DNA from: Plumapathes pennacea
Lineage: Eukaryota; Cnidaria; Anthozoa; Antipatharia; Myriopathidae
Assembly (NCBI GenBank): GCA_964036295.1
Contig: OZ038469.1
Coordinates: forward strand, 2,402,501-2,466,500
DNA length: 64,000 bases
Direction: 5' to 3'
The translations under genes and the position numbers were made by a program. The notes under the pieces are model-generated. The model saw only the letters and a list, made by a program, of their open reading frames with translations. It was not told where the DNA came from and searched no databases. Of this stretch, positions 12,541-38,300 are shown piece by piece; the stretch's first letter is position 1; every line of letters starts with the position of its first letter.

Positions 12541-14312
12541 GTAGATCAAGGGGTAATGCCCGCTACCACTGTGGCCTTTGTGCCCTAATCTGTGGCTTCA
12601 GCTTACCAGCACATTGTGCAGTATTCTGATCAATTCTACGTCACACTATTCACACCATTGACATATACCATTTAATACCAAGTGAATACTTTCACACAAG
12701 AAATATCATTACTCATTGGTTGGGAAATATGTAGAGACCTTTAGATTTTGTTATGATTCAACAAAAACAATGATTTGCAAATGGTTTAAAGTACTGACAT
12801 GAGACTACCAGAAGATGTCACCCGATGCCGAAAACATGGTGTTGCAAAATATTGCTATTTATGACCCATCAAATATTTCCTCCCACGCGTGATTGGTAGA
12901 ATTGTGACACGTGACCGAATAACGTCCGCTCGTGAGCGGACATTATCAGCAAATAACCCCCACCTGGCGAACTAACGCTGTTTATTGACAATATCCGAAC
13001 ACAGTTCTATTTATTTAGTCACAAAAATCACTTCAAGACGACTACTGAGGAGGACATCAATTTATTGGCCGAAAATGCAGTTCCAGAAAGCACAAAAAAG
13101 CTTCACAGTTTCCGCGCCGTTATTTGCGCTGCGAGAGGAAATATTTGAAGGATAATAAAGACAATAAACTACTTTTGGCTTTGGAAATATGCACGGATAA
13201 TTGTCCTTGGACATTATCTGTTCCTCGAAGCTCACAGTTGCCCTCGAGCTTTGCTCTCGGGCAACTGTTCGCTTCTCGGAACAGATAATATCCTCGGACA
13301 ATTATCCGTGCATATTTCCTCGCCAAAAGTAGTTTATTGTTTATATATATACCCTTGCAGGGTTAATCAGATTATTTCCTGTAAGGATACTTGTAAGACA
13401 GTCTTGATTGGCATCTGTCAATATTACTTCACAAGCACCTGAGGCAGCTGCAATCTGAGATTGTATTGCAAAATTAAACCCTTGCAAATACAGACATGGA
13501 CGAATTTTCAGCCGAGTATTTCTGTAAAGGATGAGTTGGCTGGTGATACACATTTGTAAATACCATGCACGTAACATACCATAACTCCTGCCAAGGCCGT
13601 CATTCCTGCTCCAAGTTCAATGATAACTTTGTCACTGTAAACAAATTATATAAGTCCACTTCTGAGCTCATGATAAAGATTCTCCCAAATGCTCAGGAAG
13701 AAAATGTACCAGTGATACAGTGAGAATTGATTTTTTAATCAGCACTCCGAGAAACAGTACTCACTTATATTTTTCCCGGTTCTTTAGCAAATAATGGGCC
13801 AAAACTTCTTCAGAGGGCCAAAGGCCTGCCAGAAAAAAAAAAAAAAAAAAAAAGAAAAAAAAGAATAAGGATGAAATTTATAAATTTATATATAAAATTT
13901 ACAGCTCAATATTTTACAACTCACAGACATTTCCGGTGTTGTCAAACCCAGTCAAATCCTGCAGTTCAACAGCTCGTGTTCTCTGCCTAAAATGATTAAA
14001 GAGCTATCATGCATTGATCAGTTCCAGCTGTAACAATCTCCGCCGCACCACAGAAACAAACTCTCTGTCTGAATTATTGTACAATGCTCACCTGATCAAC
14101 ACCCCTGTTTCAACATGCGGACTCCTATATTCGAACCATGCGTGTTCTCCGTTCTCATCTCCTGTTAGCTCTACCTTCCTGCTCTGCAACAGACCGAAGC
14201 CGGAGAACCTCCTGACGGAAACTTTCTTCTCGTCTTGCTCCCTGTTTGCATCTTTTTTGATGATTTTCGCGAGCATTCTCCATCGTAATTTTGCAGCTGT
14301 TACGTCCGCCAT
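10232..14312 (-). CDS. CAMKMT: Calmodulin-lysine N-methyltransferase, ten exons, complete
   Basis: SAM-dependent methyltransferase that trimethylates a lysine of calmodulin (family knowledge). Exons in transcript order: 14312-14092, 13986-13925, 13825-13765, 13634-13580, 13454-13391, 12246-12186, 11537-11460, 11059-10996, 10624-10496 and 10357-10232. Phases agree at every join (921 nt, 306 residues; the human protein is about 323). Matching blocks include [32 protein letters not shown], the SAM-binding ELGAGMTALAGVM, the acidic EVILTDAN, FDFIVCADC, FVAPRRGGTLEQFC, and the C-terminal NIHYPVLLKL followed by an extra tail ending ELTAHE. The start MADVTAAKLRW lies only 70 bp from the ATG of a BPNT1-like exon on the other strand. 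Introns carry two large fold-backs and a G-tract repeat. Expected nuclear/cytosolic location is from the family. Confidence 0.93.
11115..11285 (-). repeat. Dispersed short repeat, minus-oriented copy (CAMKMT intron)
   Basis: About 170 bp with phrases such as ACTATCAATTCTCA, ACATCACTCATACA and AGGAGAATCTG. These recur at 28826-29010 and, inverted, at 31975-32138, 32885-33012, 58186-58275 and 58915-59122. It has no coding potential and looks like a SINE or MITE family. Confidence 0.6.
11657..12175. repeat. G-tract-bounded dispersed repeat, one full and one partial copy
   Basis: A G run at about 11660-11677 is followed by GTACTCAATAGGAATTTGGG and degenerate units of the type TACCCTGTCTAAGAC. 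It ends near 12050 in a segment resembling the other copies (GATACCCTATCGGGC, then TATATGGGAGTA). A second partial copy starts at about 12065 with GGGGGGTACTCAATAGGAAT and ends at a C run near 12172. The relatives at 16010-16290 and 44691-45022 share the same order of motifs. Confidence 0.6.
12294..12641. repeat. Large hairpin (arms about 125 bp) flanked by a 16-bp direct repeat
   Basis: The left arm (about 12340-12468) and right arm (about 12493-12630) are near-perfect reverse complements. Each contains TGCACAATGTGCTGGTAAGC and a homopolymer A or T block, separated by a spacer of about 24 nt. The 16-base sequence CTGATCAATTCTACGT occurs at 12294-12309 and again at 12626-12641. It lies in a CAMKMT intron. 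Confidence 0.75.
13161..13340. repeat. Fold-back element (arms about 85 bp) in a CAMKMT intron
   Basis: The segment from ACAATAAACTACTTTTGGC to GCCAAAAGTAGTTTATTGT is an imperfect palindrome centred near 13250. Inner motifs such as TGCACGGATAATTGTCC and GGACAATTATCCGTGCA pair with each other. No ORF. It is consistent with a short fold-back/MITE family. Confidence 0.7.
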
Positions 14313-14382
14313 GTTGAAAATTAACCAGGCCTCTGCTTAGTAGCCTGGCTTTGTGCGGACAGCGAGCGTGACAGACAGTAAA
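14313..14382. promoter_or_regulatory. Compact divergent promoter: CAMKMT (-) and BPNT1-exon copy (+)
   Basis: Only 70 bp separate the two opposite ATGs. The sequence contains AATTAACCAGGCCTCTGC and GCTTTGTGCGGACAGCGAGC. It is shared with the region before the genuine BPNT1, where it is split by an inserted element (27743-27792 and 30290-30313). No TATA box is evident. Divergent promoter use is inferred from the geometry. Confidence 0.5.
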
Positions 14383-14502
14383 ATGGCTTCCAGCAGTCCC
14401 TTCGTTCTTAGGCTGATGTCTTCATCGGTGGCGATCGCCAATCGAGCGGGTAGAATTATCCGCAGTATAATGAAAACAGGCGAGTTAGGCGTAGTCGACA
14501 AG
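14383..14502 (+). pseudogene. Duplicate of BPNT1 promoter and first coding exon
   Basis: These 120 nt encode the same 40 residues as exon 1 of the BPNT1 gene at 30314-30433 (MASSSPFVLRLMSSS... ending GELGVVDK), followed by the same donor, GTAAAATCCGAAAG. Similarity runs from about 14318 upstream to about 14720 in the intron, with scattered substitutions. After that no further BPNT1 exon was found before the retroelement region, so the copy looks like a truncated 5' duplicate. It could still be transcribed, or spliced as an alternative first exon of BPNT1 15 kb downstream. The copy lacks both insertions present at 27793-30289 and 30517-30739 and therefore records the earlier state. Confidence 0.8.
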
Positions 14503-14720
14503 GTAAAATCCGAAAGAGTTTGGTAAAACTGGCCTCTGCGCGCCCGCCGGCCAGTTGCAGGATTTTACGATTTTCACAAGCATTTATAGAGAGGGGAATT
14601 TCATCACCAAAAGTCAGAAATTTGTAGTCAGCATGGGCTTGGGTGGGAGAGGGGTACTGCACTATTAAACTGTGAATTGATCTCAAATCACATCCAGTTA
14701 ATGTTTAACGAATATTACTT

Positions 14721-16009
14721 TAACGAATTTTAATTATATATACGAGGTAATATTTGTTTTGTACTGTAAGGACTTTTTTCTTTCCGTTCATTAAAGGTGT
14801 TCCTGTTCGTGGTAAATTCGTCGTCGATTAATCCTCGAGAAGATTGGCACGATCAAGCGGTGCATCAACTGGCAAAAAGTTGATAAACAATGAAATGTCA
14901 GGCTTCTTGGTTTTGTGTAGGGAGACTTAATACGGGCTTAAAAGCGAAGATACATCTCATAAACGAGGAGCAGACCGCAATCGGCACAATTATTGTGGGT
15001 TTGATAAAACAATGAAACTTGTTCTGTTACTTTGTCCAAATACTAAATGAAAGTTTACGCGAATTGTTTCTTTCTTTCTATTTTTTGCCAGATATTGTTG
15101 CGGCAACTAATGGTTCACACGAATCACGCAGGGTGACGCTACTTAAACGTCAAGCCCTCGGAAATCTTGAACCTAATAACTTCAATACAGTTAAATGCTT
15201 AATAAATATGCTCATGAAGAACTCGAAGGTGTGATCGCTCTTGCTGTCCTTGGAGCAAGTTCTTGAAGAATTTTGCGTACAAAAAGGTCACGCCTAGCTT
15301 GACGATATTACCCCAACACCCCCTAGTCACGTATATATATATGTCGGTTGGTCAACCTACTATTTGCAAGAAGTAGTCAAAATATTGTTTTCTTCCCTTG
15401 GTGATATCAGTAGGTTTAAAGCAATACAATTTGCAAAAGGCACAGTGTTCTGACTGATTTTATGTTTATTATGATAACGCACATACACGAACGACCGTAA
15501 ACTGTGTTCGAGAGGGACGGGGAGTAGGAAACCCCTAACATTACATCCAAAAGCATTAAAATCTGCATCACAAGAAATCTCAATGAAGTCTAGCCCCCGT
15601 CGCCTTGATGTGATCAGCTATGTCCTCTTCCGTTGCGCTTGGAAAAGCTTTGATGATTACTCGATCACAGATAGACAAACAGACAGATAGAAAGACAGAC
15701 AAACAAACAGACAGAAAGACTAACCCCCACCTTTCAAGCAAAATCTGCTCGAATAACGTCAATAATGCTTTGCAATTTGTGCTAGGTATGTATTAACATG
15801 TACAAGTAGGAGGCGAGCAGCCCACGAACAGCGTCTAGCATTTTCTGTTAAGGAGTGGTGCACGGCACACTTTCAACAATTTGTAATTAATCTATATCAA
15901 ATGGACCTCCCACTAGCAAAATCTGGGGCTGAATGAATTAGTTCTTTATGCTTTCATCAACATCACAGTCCCTCTGAAAATAAAAGGCAAAAGTGTCAAG
16001 ACAAATTAT
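14721..16009. other. Gene-free stretch with microsatellite
   Basis: I see no supported gene. A GACAGACA/AAGACAGACAAAC-type microsatellite lies at about 15671-15720. The short ORFs here show no family features. Confidence 0.5.
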
Positions 16010-18955: not shown

Positions 18956-19186
18956 ATAAATGCCCTGTGGTAACTGCTAGGCCAAGTTTGCTGACGCAAC
19001 CTTCAACAAGTTGCTGCTGTGCACTGAAGCAGCTCTTCTTGTACAGTTTTGCAACAGGGTTTTGTTGCAATTCTTACTACGACCCATGTCACCAAAACCA
19101 AAGACACGTTCTTACCTTAGTCCAAGAGGTGTAAAGTGATAGTCACACCAGGACAACAAGGAGACAGCAGCAGGGTGAGAGGCAGT

Positions 19187-19716
19187 AACACGCCAGGGCG
19201 ACAACCAAACACGCCAGGGCGACAACCAAACATGCCAGGGTGACAACCAAACACGCCAGGGCGACAACCAAACACGCCAGGGCGACAACCTAACACGCCA
19301 GGGCGACAACCTAACACGCCAGGGCGACAACCTAACACGCCAGGGCGACAACCTAACACGCCAGGGCGACAACCTAACACGCCAGGGCGACAACCTAACA
19401 CGCCAGGGCGACAACCTAACACGCCAGGGCGACAACCAAACACGCCAGGGCGACAACCTAACACGCCAGGGCGACAACCTAACACGCCAGGGCGACAACC
19501 AAACACGCCAGGGCGACAACCTAACACGCCAGGGCGACAACCTAACACGCCAGGGCGACAACCAAACACGCCAGGGCGACAACCTAACACGCCAGGGCGA
19601 CAACCTAACAAGCCAGGGCGACAACCTTACATGCCAGGGCGACAACCAAACACGCCAGGGCGACAACCAAACACGCCAGGGTGACAACCATGCACGCCAG
19701 GACGACAACCAAACTG
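19187..19716. repeat. 21-bp minisatellite A, about 25 copies
   Basis: The unit is ACACGCCAGGGCGACAACCA (plus one base, A or T variants), repeated head to tail with few changes. Because 21 is a multiple of three, several frames stay open throughout. The minus strand reads a heptad like LSPWRVR for over 200 residues, and the plus strand reads NTPGRQP. Identical period with no unique spacers excludes a CRISPR array. A few stray units continue to about 19840. Confidence 0.9.
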
Positions 19717-20040
19717 CCAACTGGACAACCTGATACGCCCAGTGTGTATACATTACAAAGCCAAGGAAGCATCCTACACGGCATCGAAACGCAGAACGCA
19801 AAGGCGACAATCAGACACGCCAGGGCGACAACCCCCCGCAGCTACCCAACACGCCTTACGACGGCAGGCAGGCACGAAATGGGGGAAGTAGGCACAAGAC
19901 GAGAGGCGGTCGCAGCTATGCGCCGAGGATCGAGACGGTAGGCCTGCCACATAATGACAGAACATATACCACAGCAAGACGTGCCATTCCTGCCCGCAGC
20001 AAGACAGCATAAAGGTTTCGAGAAGACAGCCGGTTATCAG

Positions 20041-20586
20041 TGCAAGACGGCAGTCGGTCACTGCAAGACGGAAGGCGGTCGCAGCAAGACGGCAGGCGGT
20101 CGCAGCAAGACAGCAGGCGGTCGCAGCAAGACTTCAAGCGGTCGCAGCAAGACGGCAGGCGGTCGCAGCAAGACGGAAGGCGGTCGCAGCAAGACGGAAG
20201 GCGGTCGCAGCAAGACGGAAGGTGGTCGCAGCAAGACGGAAGGCGGTCGCAGCAAGACGGCAGGCGGTCGCAGCAAGACGGCAGGCGGTCGCAGCAAGAC
20301 AGCAGGCGGTCGCAGCAAGACGGCAGGCGGTCGCAGCAAGACGGCAGGCGGTCGCAGCAAGACGGCAGGCGGTCGCAGCAAGACGGCAGGCGGTCGCAGC
20401 AAGACGGCAGGCGGTCGCAGCAAGACGGAAGGCAGTCGCAGCAAGACGGCAGGCGGTCGCTGCAAGACGGCAGGCGGTCGCAGCAAGACGGCAGGCGGTC
20501 GCAGCAAGACGGAAGGCGGTCGCAGCAAGACGGAAGGCGGTCGCAGCAAGACGGAAGGCGGTCGCAGCAAGACGGAAGGTGGTGGT
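20041..20586. repeat. 21-bp minisatellite B, about 26 copies
   Basis: The unit is GCAAGACGGCAGGCGGTCGC (plus A), with GGCAGG/GGAAGG variants. Open frames again run through in five of six phases (for example GGRSKTA on plus and LPSCCDR on minus). The period equals that of minisatellite A, and the units share a CAGG...AA.ACG skeleton. The 320-bp gap between the arrays contains degenerate, mixed units. Confidence 0.9.
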
Positions 20587-20599
20587 TACACGAAGGCTC

Positions 20600-21187: not shown

Positions 21188-22135
21188 TTATTTTGTTGCA
21201 AATTGCATCAGATTGTATCTAGCTGTTGCCACAGCATGTTTGAACCCAGGAGTTCTGATGTAGAGCTGATAAGCACTGCTGGTCCACCTCCCCAGGGCTT
21301 GGATGGGGTGATCCGGCACTCCACTGCGTGCTGCAACTGTGGCAGCTCCGATGCAAAAGCTATGGCTCGAGAGTTGCCTGGCACACCTGCAGCTGCCACG
21401 ATTTGGCGAAGCCAGTTGGTGAGTAAGGTGTGAGTCAGGCCAACCGTCCTGCAGCAAGAACAAGGGGCCTGGGGCAATACCTCTGAGAGCTAGATAAGCC
21501 AACATGGCCTGAACAGCGCAAAGAGGTGTACCAAGGCCAATGTGAATAAAGCAGCCAACGCGGAACAGATCAGTCTTGGACGCCTTAATCTTAACTTGCA
21601 AGCAGGAAGGGTTAGAGTTGGAGTTCACAGCAATATCTGATACCTCAAGGTGAATGGAGGACTGGAAACTGGCGAGGTTGGGGACTGGAACTCTGAGGAT
21701 CTCAAGAAGCCAAAGAAGGCGAAAGTGCAGGCAGCCCAGAACATGCAGTGGTCAGGAAGAATCAGATCGAGGGAGTTGGCAACAATCCACATAATGGAGT
21801 CAGTCACAGGCAAACGTTCGTTGGCAGGAGAGCCTTGTTGACGCTTGATGCTACAAACCACCCTGGAGACGTAGACAGTTGGCTAGAGGATCGGGGAAGC
21901 CTTGTTCGATGTGTAGAGACCGTACAGCGGAAAGGTAGACCTTAATGGAGGAATGTTGGAGGGACTCAGCTAAGGAAGTTGCAAAAAGGCAGAGGGTCCA
22001 CTCATCGGCTGGACAAGGAGAGCCACTGGCGTGAAGCCTGCCGGAATGAAGACAGAACTGGTGAAACCTGTCTTGGGCGGACGTATAAGTTTGGCGAGTA
22101 GAAGGGGCCAGACCTTCGTAAGAAAATTCCAGCAC
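21188..22135 (-). pseudogene. DIRS tyrosine recombinase, frameshifted and with damaged active site
   Basis: Three overlapping frames make up the enzyme. 22135-21851 is the core-binding part (GLAPSTRQTYTSAQDRF...). 21861-21625 contains the first catalytic arginine region (AFFGFLRSSEF). 21628-21188 contains the beta-strand lysine region (VKIKASKTDLFR), the HxxR box and the tyrosine (SSAYQLYIRTPG). The HxxR box reads HSFCIG where HSFRIG is expected, so the second catalytic arginine is a cysteine. Frame jumps occur at about 21855 and 21626. Non-functional. Confidence 0.85.
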
Positions 22136-22808
22136 CGCTGCTCTGGTTGGGAGAAGTCAGATCCTTGAGAAGCTGATGCGGAATTGGAACTGGAAACGGG
22201 TGTGCCTCGGGAGCTAAACGCCGGAATTCCTGCCAATTAAAACGAGAAAGGGCATCAGCAATTGAGTTCCGCATGCCAGGAATGTGTTGGGCCGTGAAGA
22301 AGTTGAAACGGGCTGAGGCCATAAGCAGACTACACATTAGATGCATCAGCTGGGGGACCTTGGAAGTCCTAGAGTTGAGGACCAACACGACAGCTGTGTT
22401 GTCAGAACGGAACAAAATGTTCCTCTTAGCCCACCTTGGGCCCCACAGATGCGCTGCGATAACCACCGGGAAGAGTTCCTTGTAGGCAATAAACTCGTGC
22501 CGTTGGATGGGCAACCATGGACCAGAGAACCATTCTCCGCGGAAAAAGGCACCAAAGCCAAGGGAACTTGCTGTGTCAGAAGTGACCTCCAGATCTAAAT
22601 CCGGGGTCAAGCCTGGATAGAGCCAGAAGCTGACACCGTTCCCCGAAGAGACAAATTGAACCCACCACTGGAGGTCAAGGTGGAACTCCCGGTTTAACCG
22701 GATAGGATGATCAGGTTGCCAGAAGCAGCAGAGCAGGTCAATCATGCGACGCAGGAAGGTTCGGCCAGGCCAGACCACTTTGGCGACGAAATAGAGGTGG
22801 CCGATCAA
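22002..22808 (-). pseudogene. DIRS RNase H domain (longest intact frame of the element)
   Basis: 268 residues read in one frame. They contain RTFLRRMIDLLCCF and PIRLNREFHLDLQWW (end of the RT connection), then the RNase H acidic set: SDTASSLGFGAFF (Asp), AYKELFPVVIAAHLWG (Glu), RSDNTAVV (Asp) and NSIADALSRFNWQEFRRLAP (Asp). The domain itself looks fairly complete, suggesting an insertion that is not very ancient. Confidence 0.85.
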
Positions 22809-22820
22809 GGATTCGAGTTG

Positions 22821-27646: not shown

Positions 27647-27706
27647 GTTTCATGCCATGCTTTGAGACATTCTCGTTCCAATCTCCCAACGTACAGTCAT
27701 CTCCAG

Positions 27707-27727
27707 ATGGCCCTGGGAACGAGGTTG
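27707..27727. repeat. Isolated terminus of the CAACCTCGTTCCC element family
   Basis: The 21 bases match the right terminus of the 2.5-kb element (ATGGCCCTGGGAACGAGGTTG), in the same orientation as its right end at 30269-30288. The rest of the longer TIR is not adjacent, so this is a solo or degraded end of another copy. Confidence 0.6.
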
Positions 27728-27742
27728 TTGACTTCGAGCTGA

Positions 27743-27792
27743 AAAATTAACCAGGCCTCTGCTTAGTAGCCTGGCTTTGTGCGGACAGCGAG
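27743..27792 (+). promoter_or_regulatory. Displaced distal half of the BPNT1 promoter segment
   Basis: These about 50 bases are nearly identical to 14318-14366. In the 14.3-kb duplicate they run straight on into the GTGACAGACAG leader and the ATG. Here they are cut off from the gene by the inserted element and end in the target duplication ACAGCGAG (27785-27792). Confidence 0.7.
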
Positions 27793-27933
27793 CCAACCTC
27801 GTTCCCAGGGCCATCCGCGGCAGAAGCTCCCGACCAATGACCCTGGTACAGGCTGCAAAATGTACAAGATTCTTGTACATTTCCCCGCTTGGTATCATGG
27901 GAAGGTATCTGTTTTTTTTTTTTTTTTTTCAAA

Positions 27934-28820
27934 ATGGCGGTTTACGATTTCCTGCGTTCTCTGAACTTTTCGGTTCAGGAGTCAGACATATCTGTAAATT
28001 TCAAAGTGGGACAAGTGCGGGCATTAGAAGCCGTTTATCTGGAGAAGGATGTCTTTGGTGTTCTACCAACAGGATACGGGAAATCGTTAATTTTCCAGTT
28101 GATTCCCAATTTGATTGCTTTCAAAAAGCACACTGGAACCACCGTAGAAATAGATTCAGTCATTTTAGTTATTTGTCCTCTTCAAATCATTCGAAGTCGT
28201 TGACGCAGAAGGGAATTACAAGTGCTGTTTTGCGCTGCGGTGGATTACAAGAGCGGGACAACAGTTCAAGTGATAATTCAAGTGATGACGAGATGTTGTT
28301 AGAAATCGGTCCGGAGACGGAAAATATTCGCTTCTCGTTTGATTTAAAGTTTCTTTGCCATCTGTGCACTAATAAATAAATATCCTATACGTACATGATA
28401 TTGTGAATTTTAGTTCCAAGACTGCCTATCCAGTACATCGATTCGGACATGAAAGCATTTGCATCTGTACGATATGTGGCATATGACAATTGACATTTTC
28501 TGGTTTTGTTTTACTAGGGGCCAGGAATTTCGACCAGCATTTAAAAGGCTTTCTATTTTGGGTTCACTGTTCCCTGATGTTCCATTAGTTGCCCTGATGG
28601 GACAGCCCCACAGAAGATGCAGGAGACAATAATTGTCTTTGGTTTAAAATCACCAGTAAGAATTGTGGACAATGTTGATCAACCAAATATTTTTATTGGC
28701 AAGTATGGGCGTGGCCCAGCAAGGCTCGGTATTGAATCATTTGAGAACGTTTTGACACCAATTGCTGAACAGTTAAAGGTTGATTTGATAAACTACCCCC
28801 CATTTGACTCCCAAGAGTAA
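27934..28820 (+). pseudogene. Truncated, frameshifted RecQ-like helicase
   Basis: The first frame (27934-28203) starts MAVYDFLRSLNFSVQESD and contains QVRALEAVYLEKD followed by the Walker A loop GVLPTGYGKSLIFQL and VILVICPL. This is the N-terminal RecA-like lobe of a RecQ family DEAH helicase. A frame change near 28195 leads into SLTQKGITSAVLRCGG. The DEAH region is lost, and a later part (28515-28605) reads FRPAFKRLSILGSLFPDVPLVAL, again with a frame change before QETIIVFGLKSPVRI (28617-28820). The second lobe, zinc and HRDC regions are absent. It lies wholly inside the TIR element and is therefore a passenger. Confidence 0.75.
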
Positions 28821-28825
28821 TCAAG

Positions 28826-29010
28826 TTCAATTTTCTCCTTCAGTTGGCAGCACAAATTTATATTCATACAGTAAGGTGAACTTGGCTTTTGATACTTTGC
28901 TCAGATGATAGCTGATTAAACTATCAATTCTCACTACATCACTCATACAATTTTCTCTTAAAAGGTTAGGAGAATCTGCCTTTTGAACTTTGAACTTGGG
29001 AGTGAAAGGG
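28826..29010 (-). repeat. Dispersed short repeat, copy inside the TIR element
   Basis: Shares CTATCAATTCTCACTACATC and the GGTTAGGAGAATCTGCC phrase with the copy at 11115-11285. Its presence within a transposed element means it can be carried passively. Confidence 0.55.
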
Positions 29011-30313
29011 TTAACTCATTTGTGTCCAAGTGAAAAACAAAGAAAATTAATCATAAATTGAATATTTGCAGGAACATGAAAAGGCATACCTCTTTGGAAA
29101 GCCTAGTAGATATAAAGTTTGGCTGAAATCTGGTAAAAGGATGGTGGGTTCCTCAATATGATATTTGGTCAACTTTAAAAGTGAAATGGTAGACAATATT
29201 TTCCAGGAAATTCACAGTACAATATTGAATATGTTCAGAAACATGGAAAGGCATACCTCTCTGGAAAGCTTGTTAGATGTATTTCATGATAGAAGGCTGG
29301 TTTTCACAATCAGACCAACATTTGTAGCAAAAATAAACATTCAACCAGCATAAATTAGTACAATTTCACCCTGGAATTTAGGCAAAACATATCTGGACTA
29401 AACAAATTTTGTCCTGGAACAACTATTGACACACATAAAGTTAGCTTTTTATCTTGAAATCTTGTTTTGGAAGTTTAGCTGAAAGGATTTGATAAAAGGT
29501 AAGTAGGTTCCTAAGTATGATAGCCCTGCTACTTGGAAGCACCATATACTCATAATTTATTCATGATGTTATGATACCTGAATCATATTTTACAAACATG
29601 GAAGTAATTAATTAAGTGAAGGTATTTACATGCTACCAGGGTGAAGAGAAGGGTCATCTAATAGCAGTTGGTCATCCCAGAAATGAGAAACACTGCATTT
29701 GCAAACGAAAACACTTTTCTTTACAGACAATCGAAAATAGCTGTGATATGTCAACAAATCAAGCAACATTGACACGCGACTGTAAACTCTGCCCAAATTC
29801 GCTGCCGCTTTTATGATTATCGACTCTTATCATTGTAATCTAACTTTCAAACATGTTTTTGTAACAGTGTGCAAGGTTTTGAATTGGACTTGAACGGCAC
29901 TCGCATATGTAAACAGCTTTATTCTCAAAATTACATAAGATGTCGACAAACTCACTTGACTTGTCGCTGAAATCATCAGTTCGCGGTCAATTTCCGATTC
30001 TTCACCGAAGGATAATTCTTCCATGACACTATCCAGACCACTATCATCATCAGATCCCGGTACTAAAGCCAAACCTTATCAAAATTTAAGATATCGACAA
30101 TCTTTATCACGCAAAATAGTGTCATGCTGTCCGGGAACAACACAGCACAGCACAACACAACACAACACACCAATCATAAACAATATTTTATTGAGCAGAT
30201 CGGACCAATCACAGCGCGTGGTAGTTCAGCCTGTACCAGGGTCATTGGTCGGGAGCTTCTGCCGCGAATGGCCCTGGGAACGAGGTTGGACAGCGAGCGT
30301 GACAGACAGTAAA

Positions 30314-32752
30314 ATGGCTTCCAGCAGTCCCTTCGTTCTTAGGCTGATGTCTTCATCGGTGGCGATCGCCAATCGAGCGGGTAGAATTATCCGTAGTATA
30401 ATGAAAACAGGCGAGTTGGGCGTAGTCGACAAGGTAAAATCCGAAAGAATTTGGAAAAACTGGCCTCTGCGCGCCCGCCGGCCAGTTGCAGGATTTTACG
30501 ATTTTCACAAGCATTAAGCTGGTGTTACACTGGTCGATTTGCAGCGACGATTTGCAACGCCGATTTGCTCCAAATTCGCGCAACGGTGTTGCAAGTTTAT
30601 GGATTGCTTTCAAAAACTTGCAACGCGTTGCAACACTACAAACATCGCGAAAAATCGTTCGCAAATTATGGAGTGTCTCACCTGAGCAATTTTTAGCGCA
30701 ACATCGTATCGTTGCAAATCGACCAGTGTAACACCACCTTTAGGGAGGGGAATTTCATCACCAAAAGTCAGAAATTTGTAGTCAGCATGGGCTTGGGTGG
30801 GAGAGGGGTACTCCACTATTAATCAAATCACATCTAGTTAAGGTTTAACGAATATTACTACTGACAGATGTTTATGAAATATTTTGAAAGTTGTTTTGCT
30901 TCTTTTGTTGGTTACAGGGAGGCGCTGGTCAGTTTGATCCTCAGACGGAGGCTGACAGAACAGCTCAGAAATGTATCATGGCATCACTACTACGAAATTT
31001 TCCAAATCTGACTATTGTGGGGGAAGAAGAGGTTAGTGAAAATTACTGGGCTTTTCCCAGGCTCTCAAAAAGAACTGGGATGAGAAATTGCAGGCCCGGG
31101 GTTTCAAAATTAAATTAAATTTTATTATAATTTTAAATTATATTTTCTCCAAGCCATTGGTCTTCAAAACAGGCCTATGACATTTTAGGTTTGACTTCAG
31201 TCAAGCACAAAAAGAAAAATTATTGTTGAAAAAATTAGTTTAGACCAGTTTCTGAAGGTCATGTGTGCATCCAAGTGTGATTGACCACATCTTTATGGAC
31301 ACTATTTATTTGTCAAAAGTTATGATCTTGGGTAGCATACAGCCTTGAGAATGGTTACTGATCTAATTTGATAGGGAATTGTCATGGTTCATTTAAGGAT
31401 CTACTCTTATACTTGTGGTTCATGTTATAGTTTGTGTTTGTGTAAAGGAGAGTTTATAAAAATGTTTCATAGGGGGTCGATGCAACAGGTGTAAAAGATG
31501 AGCTGATTGAAACCTCCTTGGATCCAGAAGTATTAAAGCACTCCTGTCCTGATAACTTAAAATCTGTCAATGCAGAAGATGTAAGTACCTCATACCAAAA
31601 CTGCCATAATAGTAAATTATATCAATGAAAATATGTACACATGCCCTTACTTTGGTCAATTAACCAGTCCATATTAAAGTTACTGTACAGACCAGCAAAC
31701 TACAGTCACATTCTTTCCTCAATGGAAGATGCCACCTCACTTGCTTCCATACTAAAAACAAGGCCACCTCATTGTTATTATTTTCAGTGAATGTTATATG
31801 ATGGCCATGGTATGTATATTTTCTGTTCAAGCTTACTTTCGACTATATATGCGTATATATGTATTTTCATTATTTTTATGCCATTCCTATCAGGTGATTG
31901 TCTGGGTTGATCCTGTAGATGGGACCAAGGAATTCACAGAAGGTACTTATCAAATACAAATTCTCCCAACCAGAAAATAAGAAAATGTATGAGTGATGAA
32001 ACATAAATTCATGTTTTAATCAGCTGTCATTTTTGCAAGGTATCAAAAGCCAAATTCTCCATACTTTATGATAGATCTCTGGTGGGAGACTGAAAAGAGA
32101 AAATTGAAGTTGATCACTCTTGGGACTGAAAGGGTTAACAGTGTTTTGTAATGTGGGAATTATTCCAGTCTCAACATAAAAAATGACACTGCATAATATA
32201 TTTTCAACAGGCCTGTATGACCATGTGACTGTACTGATTGGTGTGTCTCTCCGTGGTAAACCAATCGGTGGAGTCATCCACCAGCCCTTCTTTGGCTACC
32301 AGAATGCTGGAGCTGGTGACATTGGACGTACCATGTGGGCCATTTCTGGCTTGGGAACCTTTGGATTCACACACATCCCACCCCCTAAAGGTCGCCGTGT
32401 CATTACCACCACTCGATCGCACTCTAACAAATCTGTGGTGGATGCTATAGAAGCTATGAAGCCAGATAACATTATCCGTGCTGGAGGAGCGGGTTACAAG
32501 GTGATTCTGTTATTGGAAGGCACTGCCGATGGGTACATATTTGCAAGCCCAGGATGCAAGCGCTGGGACACTTGTGCATGTGAAGCAGTATTAGAAGGTG
32601 TTGGGGGAAAACTGACAGATGTATTTGGAAATGAGATAAAGTATGAGCTAGCTGACTCCTATATGAACAGAGCTGGTGTGGTTGCTTCTTTGAAGGAGCA
32701 CAGTCTTTTCCTCAGCTTGATTCCAGAGAATGTTAAAAGCAAATTAAAATAA
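30314..32752 (+). CDS. BPNT1: 3'(2'),5'-bisphosphate nucleotidase 1, five exons, complete
   Basis: Lithium-sensitive phosphatase that converts 3'-phosphoadenosine 5'-phosphate (PAP) to AMP in sulfate metabolism and also acts on some inositol phosphates (family knowledge). Exons 30314-30433, 30918-31031, 31473-31580, 31894-31942 and 32211-32752 join cleanly to about 310 residues (human 308). Metal-binding motifs are visible: GEEE at the exon 2-3 join and WVDPVDGTKEF in exon 4. Exon 5 gives ITTTRSHSNKSVVDAI, RAGGAGYK and the WDTCACE motif. Exon 1 is duplicated at 14383-14502. The proximal promoter has been separated from its upstream half by a 2.5-kb element, and intron 1 holds a MITE (30517-30739). 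An AATAAA at 32748-32753 overlaps the stop codon. Confidence 0.95.
30517..30739. mobile_element. 223-bp MITE in BPNT1 intron 1 (PIF/Harbinger-like)
   Basis: Ends AGCTGGTGTTACACTGGTCG and CGACCAGTGTAACACCACCT are inverted repeats of about 30 bp. TTA flanks both sides (30514-30516 and 30740-30742). The duplicate locus at 14581-14590 lacks the element and has a TTTA at the same place. No ORF. A second copy is at 35577-35795. A 3-bp TTA duplication is the hallmark of PIF/Harbinger, hence the tentative class. Confidence 0.75.
31975..32138 (+). repeat. Dispersed short repeat, BPNT1 intron copy
   Basis: Contains GAAAATGTATGAGTGATGAA, TTTTAATCAGCTGTCAT and CTCTGGTGGGAGACTGAAAA, ending in AAGGGTTAAC. 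Close to the copies at 58915-59122 and 32885-33012. Confidence 0.6.
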
Positions 32753-35249: not shown

Positions 35250-35312
35250 CTCCATTTGGGTGTTGACGTGACAATCACGTGCGCAAAACATGGAGGAGGG
35301 TTTTTTCTACCG
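35250..35312 (+). repeat. SLC25 5' end, copy A of a 63-bp direct repeat
   Basis: Runs from the upstream TCCATTTGGGTGTTGACG through the start codon to the eighth codon of the carrier (MEEGFFYR). Copy B at 36015-36077 differs at about four positions. Confidence 0.75.
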
Positions 35313-38300
35313 AACGTTTAAAAATTCTCTCTCTGGGACAATTAGTGGGATCGCAGTATGTCTCGTCGGTCATCCATTCGACACGCTGAAAGTGCGCCTG
35401 CAAACCCAGCCTGTGGATCGCCCTGTTTACAAAGGGTTGGTGGATTGTTTCATGAAAACCATGAAATGGGAGGGCATAGGAGGCTTGTACAAAGGCGTTG
35501 GTAAGCTGCACCGATCATGTTCGCCGTTTTTCAAAGTCGCATGACAAAGTCGTATCGTTTCGCTGTACTTCCTTAAAGGTGGTGTTACACTGGTCGATTT
35601 GCAACGACGATTTGCAACGATGCGATGTTGCGCTAAAAATCGTTGAGGTGTAACACCGCATTGCGAACGATTTTTCGCGATGTTTGCAGTGCTGCAACGC
35701 GTTGCAAGTTTTTGAAAGCGATTCAAAAAGTTGCAACACCGTTGCGTGAGTTTGGAGCAAATCGGCGTTGCAAATCGACCAGTGTAACACCAGCTGAAGG
35801 GGACTTGGACCTTTCAATTTTCTTGCCACTTGAGTAAGCTTCCTTAGCTAGTTCAGATATGATAGTGCCCAGTTTTGCAGCTAACCCGTACCTCCACTGC
35901 AAAGTCAGCAAGTAATGTAAAGCATTGCATTTTGGCTTTAGTCTCATTTAAGAACTTTGCAAACATCGCGAAAAATCGTTCGCAATGGGGTGTTACACCT
36001 CAACGATTTTTAGCCTCCATTTGGGTGTTGACGTTACCATCACGCGCGCAAAACATGGAGGAGGGTTTTTTCTACCGCAGTTTGGGTGCTCTTGCTGGCT
36101 GTATTAGTACAGATTGTTTACTTTCAACAGCAACTTGTGCTCCTTTTTAATTTGATGCTAAGACTCCAGCATCACAATCGCTCGAGTGGTTTCCGGCGCT
36201 ACTTGAGTGTTCTCCCAACTTCCCAAGTGTTTAGATGAGGCTATATTACACGGAAACACGTTATATATTTCTTTTATAAAATAGTTAGTCAAGTAAAAAA
36301 CATCCCGTATCGCATCAGCGTGTAATACACTCTCATCTAGCACGGTTAGATGAGAGTATATTATGTAGCCAATCAGGGCACGCGTAGTATCATAGTTATT
36401 TTATGATAAATTATCATAATAGAATGCGATGGATGAACATCAAGTGGCAATTAATCCCTCTAACAGCATCTGATTTGTTTGTATTTGTACTTTGACAGGC
36501 TCTCCTATTGTTGGACAGATGTTTTTTAGAGCAACCTTGTTCACTTCTTACTATCAGGTAAGTGCAACAACAAAATTAAAACACAATTTACTGTAAGAGC
36601 AGTGTATAAGACTAGAGGTAATATATTATAAGAAAATATTGATGCCTGAATCAGTAGACAATAGGTCACTAGCTGCTGATTTTCTCAAAATTCTACAGCA
36701 TATAGGTATATAGTTTTTTACCACAACACACTAGTTTCTCGCTCTCTGATTGGTCGATTTACCGTGGTAAATAAGAGTCCAGACAACGATGCTGATGCCA
36801 GCTGACGCCAGCATGTCACGTTTTGCAGTGAAATACAACGAAAGTTTCCTGTATATTTCTAAATGCTGTGGTAAAAAACAAATTTCCACTGGTTTGCCGT
36901 GGTGTGGACTCTTATTTACCACGATTTACGTCATCACATGGTCAAAATTTGTTGCAGACTCACTCGGCGAAGCGCCTCGTGAGTCCACAACATTTTGACC
37001 ATGTGATGACGTAAATCATGGTAAATAAGAGTCCACACCACGGCAAACCAGTGGAAATTTATTAAATAGTTGCAGACTGCCACTGATAAATCGCTCAACT
37101 TATATATTTTCTTTTTCCCTCTTGAAGTTTAATGCATTTTTTGCTGGAAAACACAGACAAGGCGAAAGATTGTCAATGTCAGAGTATTTTCTGTGTGGAA
37201 TGCTTACCGGAGGTGTTGTTGCATTTATTGAAGGGCCTATTGACTTGGTGAGTTTGCTTTCTTTGTTTCTCTGATTATTATCCATTGTTGCGGACACACC
37301 AGTTTACGCAACTTTCACAAGACTTCAGTATTAATATATTAGGTTTAAAAAGATGCCAACATACACATAAAGTTCAACATCCATTTTCTCATTTGACAGT
37401 TCAAATCCAAGATGCAAATCCAGATCATAAGAGCAAAATCTGGGGAGCCAGTTTTGTACCGAAACGTGTTCCATGCTGGTTGGGTTATAACAAAGAGTCA
37501 TGGTATCCGTGGAGCCTACCAGGGTTTACCAGCCACCTTATTAAGGAACATGCCAGCAAATTCTGCATTCTTTGGTGAGTACAACACTAACAAAATATGG
37601 CAATTTAAGTTTAGTGGCTTATTTTTGTATTTTTCTTTCTGATTTAATGCTCTCCCCTTTTTCAAGTGGGAAACGTTAGGCTGATGCAACTGTACAAACC
37701 AAGAGAAAATATTATTTTATTTTACACAAACTTATTGGCAATGGCTTTGGAATTGAGGGCACTTCTATCCACTTATACTCATCTTTGATACATAACACTC
37801 ATGTAGAGAAATTATTATAAATTATAAATATGCATATATAATAATATTATGCCAAAACATGATTCCAAAAACAACATGACGTGACAATATTCACTGTCTT
37901 CAAATTGTGAGTTTTGCATCATTTTGACCTGAAGCACTCACAGTATTACTACACATACAAAACTTTGAAAGTTTAAAGACAGCCAACTAAACATCATGTC
38001 TTGTGTTAGGGAGGCTTAAAAAAATAATATTAAACCTGTTTTCAGGATTCTACGAAGTGGTGAGAACAGCATTAATCCCAGAAGGGGGGACAGTGCATGA
38101 TGTATCTCCCATGGGTCTGCTGGCCGCTGGTGGTACAGGGGGGTTTCTTTATTGGTTCCTGACTTACCCCACCGATGTCATCAAGTCAAGTTTGCAGGCA
38201 GATGACTCATCAGTGAAAAAACGTCGGTTCAAAGGGATCGTTGACTGCGCGAGGACACTGTACTTCAAAGAAGGAGGCTGGAAGAGATTCTACACAGGCT

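What the first reader, a model, noticed from the sequence alone, without database searches (positions are those of the whole stretch)
27785..30297. A 2.5-kb TIR element defined by an in-window empty site
The BPNT1 5' region exists twice. At 14359-14366 a single ACAGCGAG runs straight into the leader. At the real gene the same 8 bases flank a 2497-bp insertion with 63-bp inverted termini (one mismatch). So boundaries, target duplication and relative age (insertion after the duplication) are all readable here. An 8-bp duplication with CCAACC...GGTTGG ends and no transposase suggests a non-autonomous member of an unassigned family. The insertion has moved half of the BPNT1 promoter segment 2.5 kb from the start codon.
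Basis: partly seen in the sequence, partly recalled or inferred. Interest (0 to 1): 0.75.

Follow-up and report, generated by a model that had tools for sequence, protein, structure and literature searches.

The report
Non-autonomous transposon carrying broken RecQ helicase
A 2.5-kb DNA transposon, which carries the wreck of a RecQ-type helicase gene and is probably a deleted relative of helicase-encoding Academ elements, landed 24 bp in front of the start codon of an animal BPNT1 gene; a nearby uninterrupted copy of the same site shows where it went in, but elements of this kind are broadly known.

Summary
The insertion is real. The element spans 27793-30289, has 63-bp inverted ends (one mismatch) and interrupts the BPNT1 leader 24 bp before the ATG; a copy at 14.3 kb shows the empty site. 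Two points change. (1) The direct repeat at the junctions is 11 bp (GGACAGCGAGC), so 8 bp is not forced: 8 bp with CCAACC...GGTTGG ends and 10 bp (GACAGCGAGC) with CAACC...GGTTG ends are equally symmetric. A third end-like copy 65 bp upstream matches from CAACC only, which weakly favours 10 bp. (2) From an ATG 78 bases past the left inverted repeat the element carries a frameshifted, truncated RecQ-family helicase (NCBIfam recQ_fam 9.6e-16 for two pieces joined with X). An animal DNA transposon with a RecQ-type helicase and a duplication of about 10 bp points to a non-autonomous derivative of AcademH rather than hAT, P or KDZ. Membership is unproven: no transposase was recognised, the host genome is not held, no second full copy was found, and the AcademH paper was not readable. 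The order 'duplication, then insertion' is the simplest, but divergence (1 of 63 between the ends; 8 of 384 between the copies) cannot resolve ages. The 14.3-kb copy keeps an intact leader, first exon and splice donor.

The parts
27793..30289 (.). whole element (8-bp register); 27794-30288 in the 10-bp register
   Evidence: empty-site comparison with 14317-14719
27793..27855 (+). left terminal inverted repeat, 63 bp
   Evidence: one mismatch at position 23
30227..30289 (-). right terminal inverted repeat, 63 bp
27783..27793 (.). left 11-bp direct repeat GGACAGCGAGC that holds the target duplication (8 bp: 27785-27792; 10 bp: 27784-27793)
30288..30298 (.). right 11-bp direct repeat GGACAGCGAGC (8 bp: 30290-30297; 10 bp: 30289-30298)
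27934..28182 (+). RecQ-family helicase remnant, first piece, with PTGYGKS (Walker A)
   Evidence: Pfam DEAD 6e-06, 26.5 bits against a cutoff of 26; 25.5 bits, just below cutoff, when the frame is taken from its upstream stop; BLM 0.003 in PDB
28516..28799 (+). RecQ-family helicase remnant, second piece (GQEFRPAFKRL...VALMG / TAPQKM...DNVDQPNIFIG), frame change at about 28602
   Evidence: NCBIfam recQ_fam 1.4e-06 for this piece alone; PDB RecQ and WRN; its frames give no Pfam match
28800..29017 (.). nested repeat of about 0.2 kb ending TTGGGAGTGAAAGGGTTAA; related copies at 11.1, 32.0 and 59.0 kb
27706..27727 (-). separate 22-bp end-like copy in right-end orientation, matching the TIR from CAACC only
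14317..14719 (+). uninterrupted copy of BPNT1 leader, exon 1 and part of intron 1: the empty site
30314..30433 (+). BPNT1 exon 1; 24 bases lie between element (8-bp register) and ATG; donor AAG/GTAAAA
   Evidence: downstream exons; PDB bisphosphate nucleotidase 8.9e-66

Best explanation
It is a cut-and-paste DNA transposon of the helicase-bearing kind, most likely an internally deleted AcademH-type element, mobilised in trans. A complete relative elsewhere in the genome (not seen) would supply a DDD/E transposase that binds the 63-bp inverted ends beginning CAACCTCGTTCCC, and a RecQ-family helicase that assists. This copy keeps both ends and the first part of the helicase gene, shows no transposase, and holds a short nested repeat. 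It inserted into the BPNT1 leader with a staggered cut of 10 bp (or 8 bp), after a 400-bp piece of the BPNT1 5' region had been duplicated 16 kb away. Shown: ends, flanking duplication, empty site, helicase remnant. Inferred: movement in trans, transposase type, AcademH origin, 10 bp rather than 8 bp.
For: Inverted ends and empty site. RecQ-family helicase remnant in two collinear pieces on one strand, opening 78 bases past the left TIR: Pfam DEAD 6e-06; recQ_fam 9.6e-16 for the two pieces joined with X and 1.4e-06 for the second alone; PDB RecQ 6.3e-10, WRN 3.7e-09, BLM 2.7e-08 for the joined pieces. AcademH makes 9- or 10-bp duplications and encodes a helicase (passage of PMC10045372); it is found in animals and fungi (title of Kojima 2020, seen in reference lists). 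KolobokH also has a RecQ helicase but Kolobok duplicates TTAA and KolobokH is reported only from fungi (passages of PMC9587614). 'Academ-1' repeats are counted in the thousands in each of three coral genomes (table passage of PMC12005156). The third end-like copy starts at CAACC, as the 10-bp register expects. TIRs that differ at 1 of 63 beside a broken helicase fit movement in trans of an already defective copy.
Against: No transposase was recognised: of 52 frames of 30 aa or more tested (of 61 listed around the element) one matched Pfam at E 0.05, the helicase. The 8-bp register is equally symmetric. The AcademH paper was not held, so its termini, TIR lengths and helicase type were not compared. 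The helicase scores are modest: DEAD lies at its cutoff, no single stretch of the joined query passes 1e-05 in PDB, and the best PDB hit of the first piece alone was another protein, LIC11098 (7.6e-05). The two pieces are linked by order and family, not by an open frame. A helicase fragment could have been captured. No second full copy was found, so the 2.5-kb unit is seen once. That the host is a coral is recollection of its repeats, not a result.
Confidence: 0.6

Rival explanations
1. A Mutator-like element (MULE) that captured a piece of a host RecQ helicase gene, in the manner of Pack-MULEs.
For: MULE duplications are 8-11 bp, TIRs are often long, and MULEs acquire gene fragments; a Spectre MULE has 74-bp TIRs and 8-bp duplications (passages of PMC6446971). 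The helicase is incomplete.
Against: The helicase piece begins with an ATG just inside the TIR and reads inward in order, as an element's own gene would. The MULE paper has 0 occurrences of 'helicase'. No MuDR transposase piece in 52 frames, which a deleted copy would lack in any case.
Confidence: 0.15
2. A non-autonomous hAT, P or KDZ-type element with a true 8-bp duplication.
For: 8-bp register with symmetric CCAACC...GGTTGG ends.
Against: The direct repeat is 11 bp, so 8 bp is not forced; the third end-like copy lacks the outer C; a RecQ helicase is not among the genes I know for these superfamilies (recollection).
Confidence: 0.1
3. A helicase-bearing DNA transposon of a lineage not yet named, neither AcademH nor KolobokH.
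For: RecQ-type helicase with a target that is not TTAA and no transposase to place it.
Against: AcademH already covers helicase plus 9-10 bp in animals.
Confidence: 0.12
4. The 14.3-kb copy once held the element and lost it by precise excision, so that it is not a pre-insertion site.
For: Not excluded by the letters alone: a perfect excision would leave the same sequence.
Against: One clean copy of the target, no footprint; cut-and-paste excision usually leaves a trace (general knowledge).
Confidence: 0.03

Closest known systems
AcademH lineage of Academ DNA transposons (Kojima 2020; not read, known here through PMC10045372 and PMC10799480)
   Same: helicase gene in a DNA transposon; duplication of 9-10 bp (fits the 10-bp register); animals
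   Different: no transposase seen here; termini and helicase type could not be compared
KolobokH (and Kolobok-1_CCri of a red alga)
   Same: RecQ helicase in a DNA transposon
   Different: Kolobok duplicates TTAA and has RR..YY ends, KolobokH is reported only from fungi; here 8 or 10 bp and CAACC or CCAACC ends
Mutator-like elements / Pack-MULEs
   Same: duplications of 8-11 bp, longer TIRs, gene fragments
   Different: no Mutator transposase piece; helicase sits like an own gene
Coral piggyBac-related MITEs (CMITEs, PMC2872659)
   Same: non-autonomous elements, one seen with and without insertion in two alleles
   Different: about 100 bp, TTAA duplications, CC[C/T]T ends

Membership tests
AcademH | 9- or 10-bp target site duplication | tested here: inconclusive
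   10 bp fits symmetrically, 8 bp equally; third end-like copy weakly favours 10
AcademH | encodes a helicase | tested here: met
   truncated, frameshifted RecQ-family helicase; which helicase type AcademH has was not read
AcademH | Academ DDD/E transposase | tested here: not met
   none recognised by Pfam in 52 of 61 listed frames; I do not know whether Pfam holds an Academ model. Expected for a deleted copy, but membership is therefore not claimed
AcademH | terminal sequence shared with known families | not testable with these tools
   paper not held; no Repbase tool
KolobokH | TTAA target site duplication | tested here: not met
   target is GGACAGCGAGC
hAT / P / KDZ | 8-bp target site duplication (recollection) | tested here: inconclusive
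   8 bp is one of two symmetric registers
hAT / P / KDZ | superfamily transposase | tested here: not met
   no match in 52 of 61 listed frames
Mutator-like element | 8-11 bp duplication | tested here: met
   8 or 10 bp; not diagnostic
Mutator-like element | Mutator transposase | tested here: not met
   no match in 52 of 61 listed frames

The most novel reading that the evidence does not exclude
The element has switched BPNT1 to a distant start: with its own leader split 24 bp before the ATG, BPNT1 is now transcribed from the intact duplicate leader and first exon at 14.3 kb, which keeps the same protein start and splice donor, lies on the same strand, and stands head-to-head with another gene; that exon would splice over some 16 kb to BPNT1 exon 2. 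The duplicate would then have buffered the insertion.
Probability: 0.12. Interest if true: 0.55.

Novelty: new member of a known kind. Interest (0 to 1): 0.35.

Why it matters
It gives one closely bounded insertion of a helicase-bearing transposon with its empty site in the same stretch of DNA, a starting point for settling end sequence and duplication length of this family. It also offers a natural case of a leader split by a transposon beside an intact duplicate of the same leader and first exon.

Tried and rejected
Own-genome search: not possible, no genome held. Scans of public collections for further copies: CAACCTCGTTCCCAGGGCC in viral contigs 0; CAACCTCGTTCCCAGG in viral contigs 3; helicase piece in viral contigs, 22 stretches matched a pattern, 0 relatives; CAACCTCGTTCCCAGGG in genome contigs 14; inner TIR 20-mer in viral contigs 0; CTCGTTCCCAGGGC in viral contigs 79. 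In the first 17 loci the longest match to the element was 26 bases (L009, 92%, best E 0.007); in all 96 together nothing reached E 0.01 by DNA, and the helicase pieces gave nothing at E 1; I take all as chance. As a control for host-like DNA I scanned viral contigs for AACCCTTTCACTCCCAAGA: 0. These negatives say nothing about copy number in the host.

Other dead ends: Rfam, 0 matches in the window. The minus-strand frame 29830-30075 near the right end has no Pfam match. Frame 29162-29353 gave a sub-threshold Bunya_G1 match (0.072), taken as chance. A hairpin mini-element reading of 27669-27727 was dropped: it folds no better than shuffles (z -0.12) and its 10-base flanks share 4 of 10 by eye. 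The minus-strand gene starting at 14312 looked to me like CAMKMT from memory; Pfam gave 0 for its 3 pieces and PDB 0, so the name is not used as evidence. No other helicase piece of note lies in the window (tblastn of both pieces, best off-target E 0.78).

Literature, listings only unless said: AcademH 7 papers and with two more terms 2; RecQ with coral terms 1; Academ, XPG, helicase 2; TIR letters 0; Academ, TSD, coral 25; RecQ helicase, DNA transposon, Cnidaria 37, of which 15 listed; CAMKMT with BPNT1 0; Academ with coral terms 236, of which 12 listed. Passages were seen of PMC10045372, PMC10799480, PMC2872659, PMC9587614, PMC4455052, PMC6446971 and PMC12005156. I saw no paper describing this element there; Repbase and the AcademH paper were out of reach, so it may be on record.

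One search counts 10 of 386 differences between the copies; two of the ten lie at 14720-14721, past the edge of the similarity, so I also give 8 of 384; the Fisher test used 10 of 386.

Full report
What was claimed.

The element and its site. The repeat search finds inverted arms 27793-27855 and 30227-30289, 63 nt with one mismatch. Self-comparison of the window finds the host duplication in three pieces: 14317-14367 with 27743-27793 (51 bp, 100%), 14357-14584 with 30288-30515 (228 bp, 98.2%), and 14587-14719 with 30741-30859 (133 bp, 86.5%). The first two pieces overlap by 11 bp on the 14.3-kb side, the signature of a target duplication; the word is GGACAGCGAGC. Demanding that the two ends of the element mirror each other leaves two registers: 8 bp (ACAGCGAG, ends CCAACC...GGTTGG) and 10 bp (GACAGCGAGC, ends CAACC...GGTTG); a 12-bp register fails. 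So 8 bp is a choice, not a reading.

A third end. The 22 bases at 27706-27727 equal the right end in its orientation and match it from CAACC only; the next base out is A where the element has C. No partner for it was found in the window. One copy is thin evidence, but it favours the 10-bp register. The core CCTCGTTCCCAGGGCC has 3 matches in the window against a mean of 0.17 in 100 shuffles.

What is inside. From an ATG at 27934, 78 bases past the left TIR and 141 from the element's start, one frame reads a helicase start with PTGYGKS. Pfam DEAD scores 6e-06, 26.5 bits against a cutoff of 26, or 25.5 bits when the frame is taken from its upstream stop. In PDB this piece alone finds BLM at 0.003 and RecQ at 0.0071, below an unrelated-looking LIC11098 at 7.6e-05. 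A second piece at 28516-28799 carries the stretch that follows the DEAH motif in RecQ proteins (alignment). The two pieces joined with X score 9.6e-16 with recQ_fam, the second alone 1.4e-06, both far below that model's cutoff for whole proteins, as fragments must be; the joined query finds RecQ 6.3e-10, WRN, BLM and RECQ5 in PDB, though no single stretch passes 1e-05 by itself. Frames change near 28190 and at about 28602; no DEAH motif reads in any of the three forward frames of 28183-28520, and no later helicase piece was recognised in the 52 frames scanned. A repeat of about 0.2 kb with related copies at 11.1, 32.0 and 59.0 kb sits at 28800-29017. Among the 52 frames (of 61 listed) the helicase was the only Pfam match at E 0.05; no transposase was recognised.

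What it most likely is. The passages I saw name AcademH, KolobokH and Helitron as transposons with helicases (PMC10799480), and RecQ specifically for KolobokH and one red-alga Kolobok (PMC9587614). Kolobok duplicates TTAA and KolobokH is reported only from fungi. Helitrons have no TIRs and make no target duplication (general knowledge). AcademH duplicates 9 or 10 bp (PMC10045372). The element therefore fits AcademH best, as an internally deleted copy moved in trans. I do not file it as a member: no transposase was seen, its duplication length is ambiguous, and the AcademH paper was not held. Mutator-like elements, which duplicate 8-11 bp and pick up gene pieces (PMC6446971), are the main rival.

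The host setting. BPNT1 is confirmed by an exon at 32180-32749 (PDB bisphosphate nucleotidase 8.9e-66) and by Inositol_P matches in 3 of 3 exon pieces, 1 of them above its cutoff. The ATG at 30314 is 24 bases from the element. The 14.3-kb copy has the same 40-residue exon-1 reading and the same splice donor; the two exon differences are silent. It begins 4 bases from the start codon (14310-14312) of a minus-strand frame, MADVTAAKLRW. Retroelement-like sequence fills part of the interval between the copies: of 8 frames scanned, 2 matched Pfam at E 0.01, one reverse-transcriptase-like above its cutoff and one integrase-like below it, at 21.9-22.8 kb.

Timing. Between the copies 8 of 384 (10 of 386 with two edge positions) aligned bases differ; between the two TIRs 1 of 63; Fisher p = 1.0 on 10 of 386. 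The order of events is readable from the empty site; ages are not.

Limits. One copy; no host genome; no matching host-like DNA found in the searchable collections, with only a weak control. That the host is a coral is my recollection of its repeats only.

Noticed in passing
30517-30739: A second insertion, 223 bp, absent from the 14.3-kb copy: 30-base ends with 2 mismatches (AGSTGGTGTTACACTGGTCGATTTGCARCG), TTA on both sides. The 14.3-kb copy reads GCATTTATAGAG there, so it is near but not letter-perfect as an empty site. Looks like a PIF/Harbinger-type MITE (label from memory); a related sequence lies at 35570-35798.
   Followed up: partly
14091-14320: The uninterrupted BPNT1 leader copy stands head-to-head, 4 bases away, with a minus-strand frame starting MADVTAAKLRW, so it may act as a two-way promoter; which of the two arrangements is older is open.
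   Followed up: partly
21854-22820: Minus-strand reverse-transcriptase-like (RVT_3 9.8e-05) and tyrosine-recombinase-like (Phage_int_SAM_1 8e-04, below cutoff) matches side by side, as in a DIRS-type retroelement (the DIRS label is from memory).
   Followed up: partly
19144-19833 and 19995-20597: Two long minisatellite arrays with copies spaced by multiples of about 63 bp, open in several frames.
   Followed up: no
29830-30075: Minus-strand frame near the right end (SDDDSGLDSVMEELSFGEESEIDREL) with a possible splice donor after it by eye; could be the first exon of a missing gene of the autonomous element; no Pfam match.
   Followed up: partly
27858-27882: 12-bp perfect palindrome AAATGTACAAGA-T-TCTTGTACATTT just inside the left TIR, not seen inside the right one.
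   Followed up: no
35272-35541: Mitochondrial carrier domain (Mito_carr 4.6e-16) on the + strand downstream of BPNT1.
   Followed up: no
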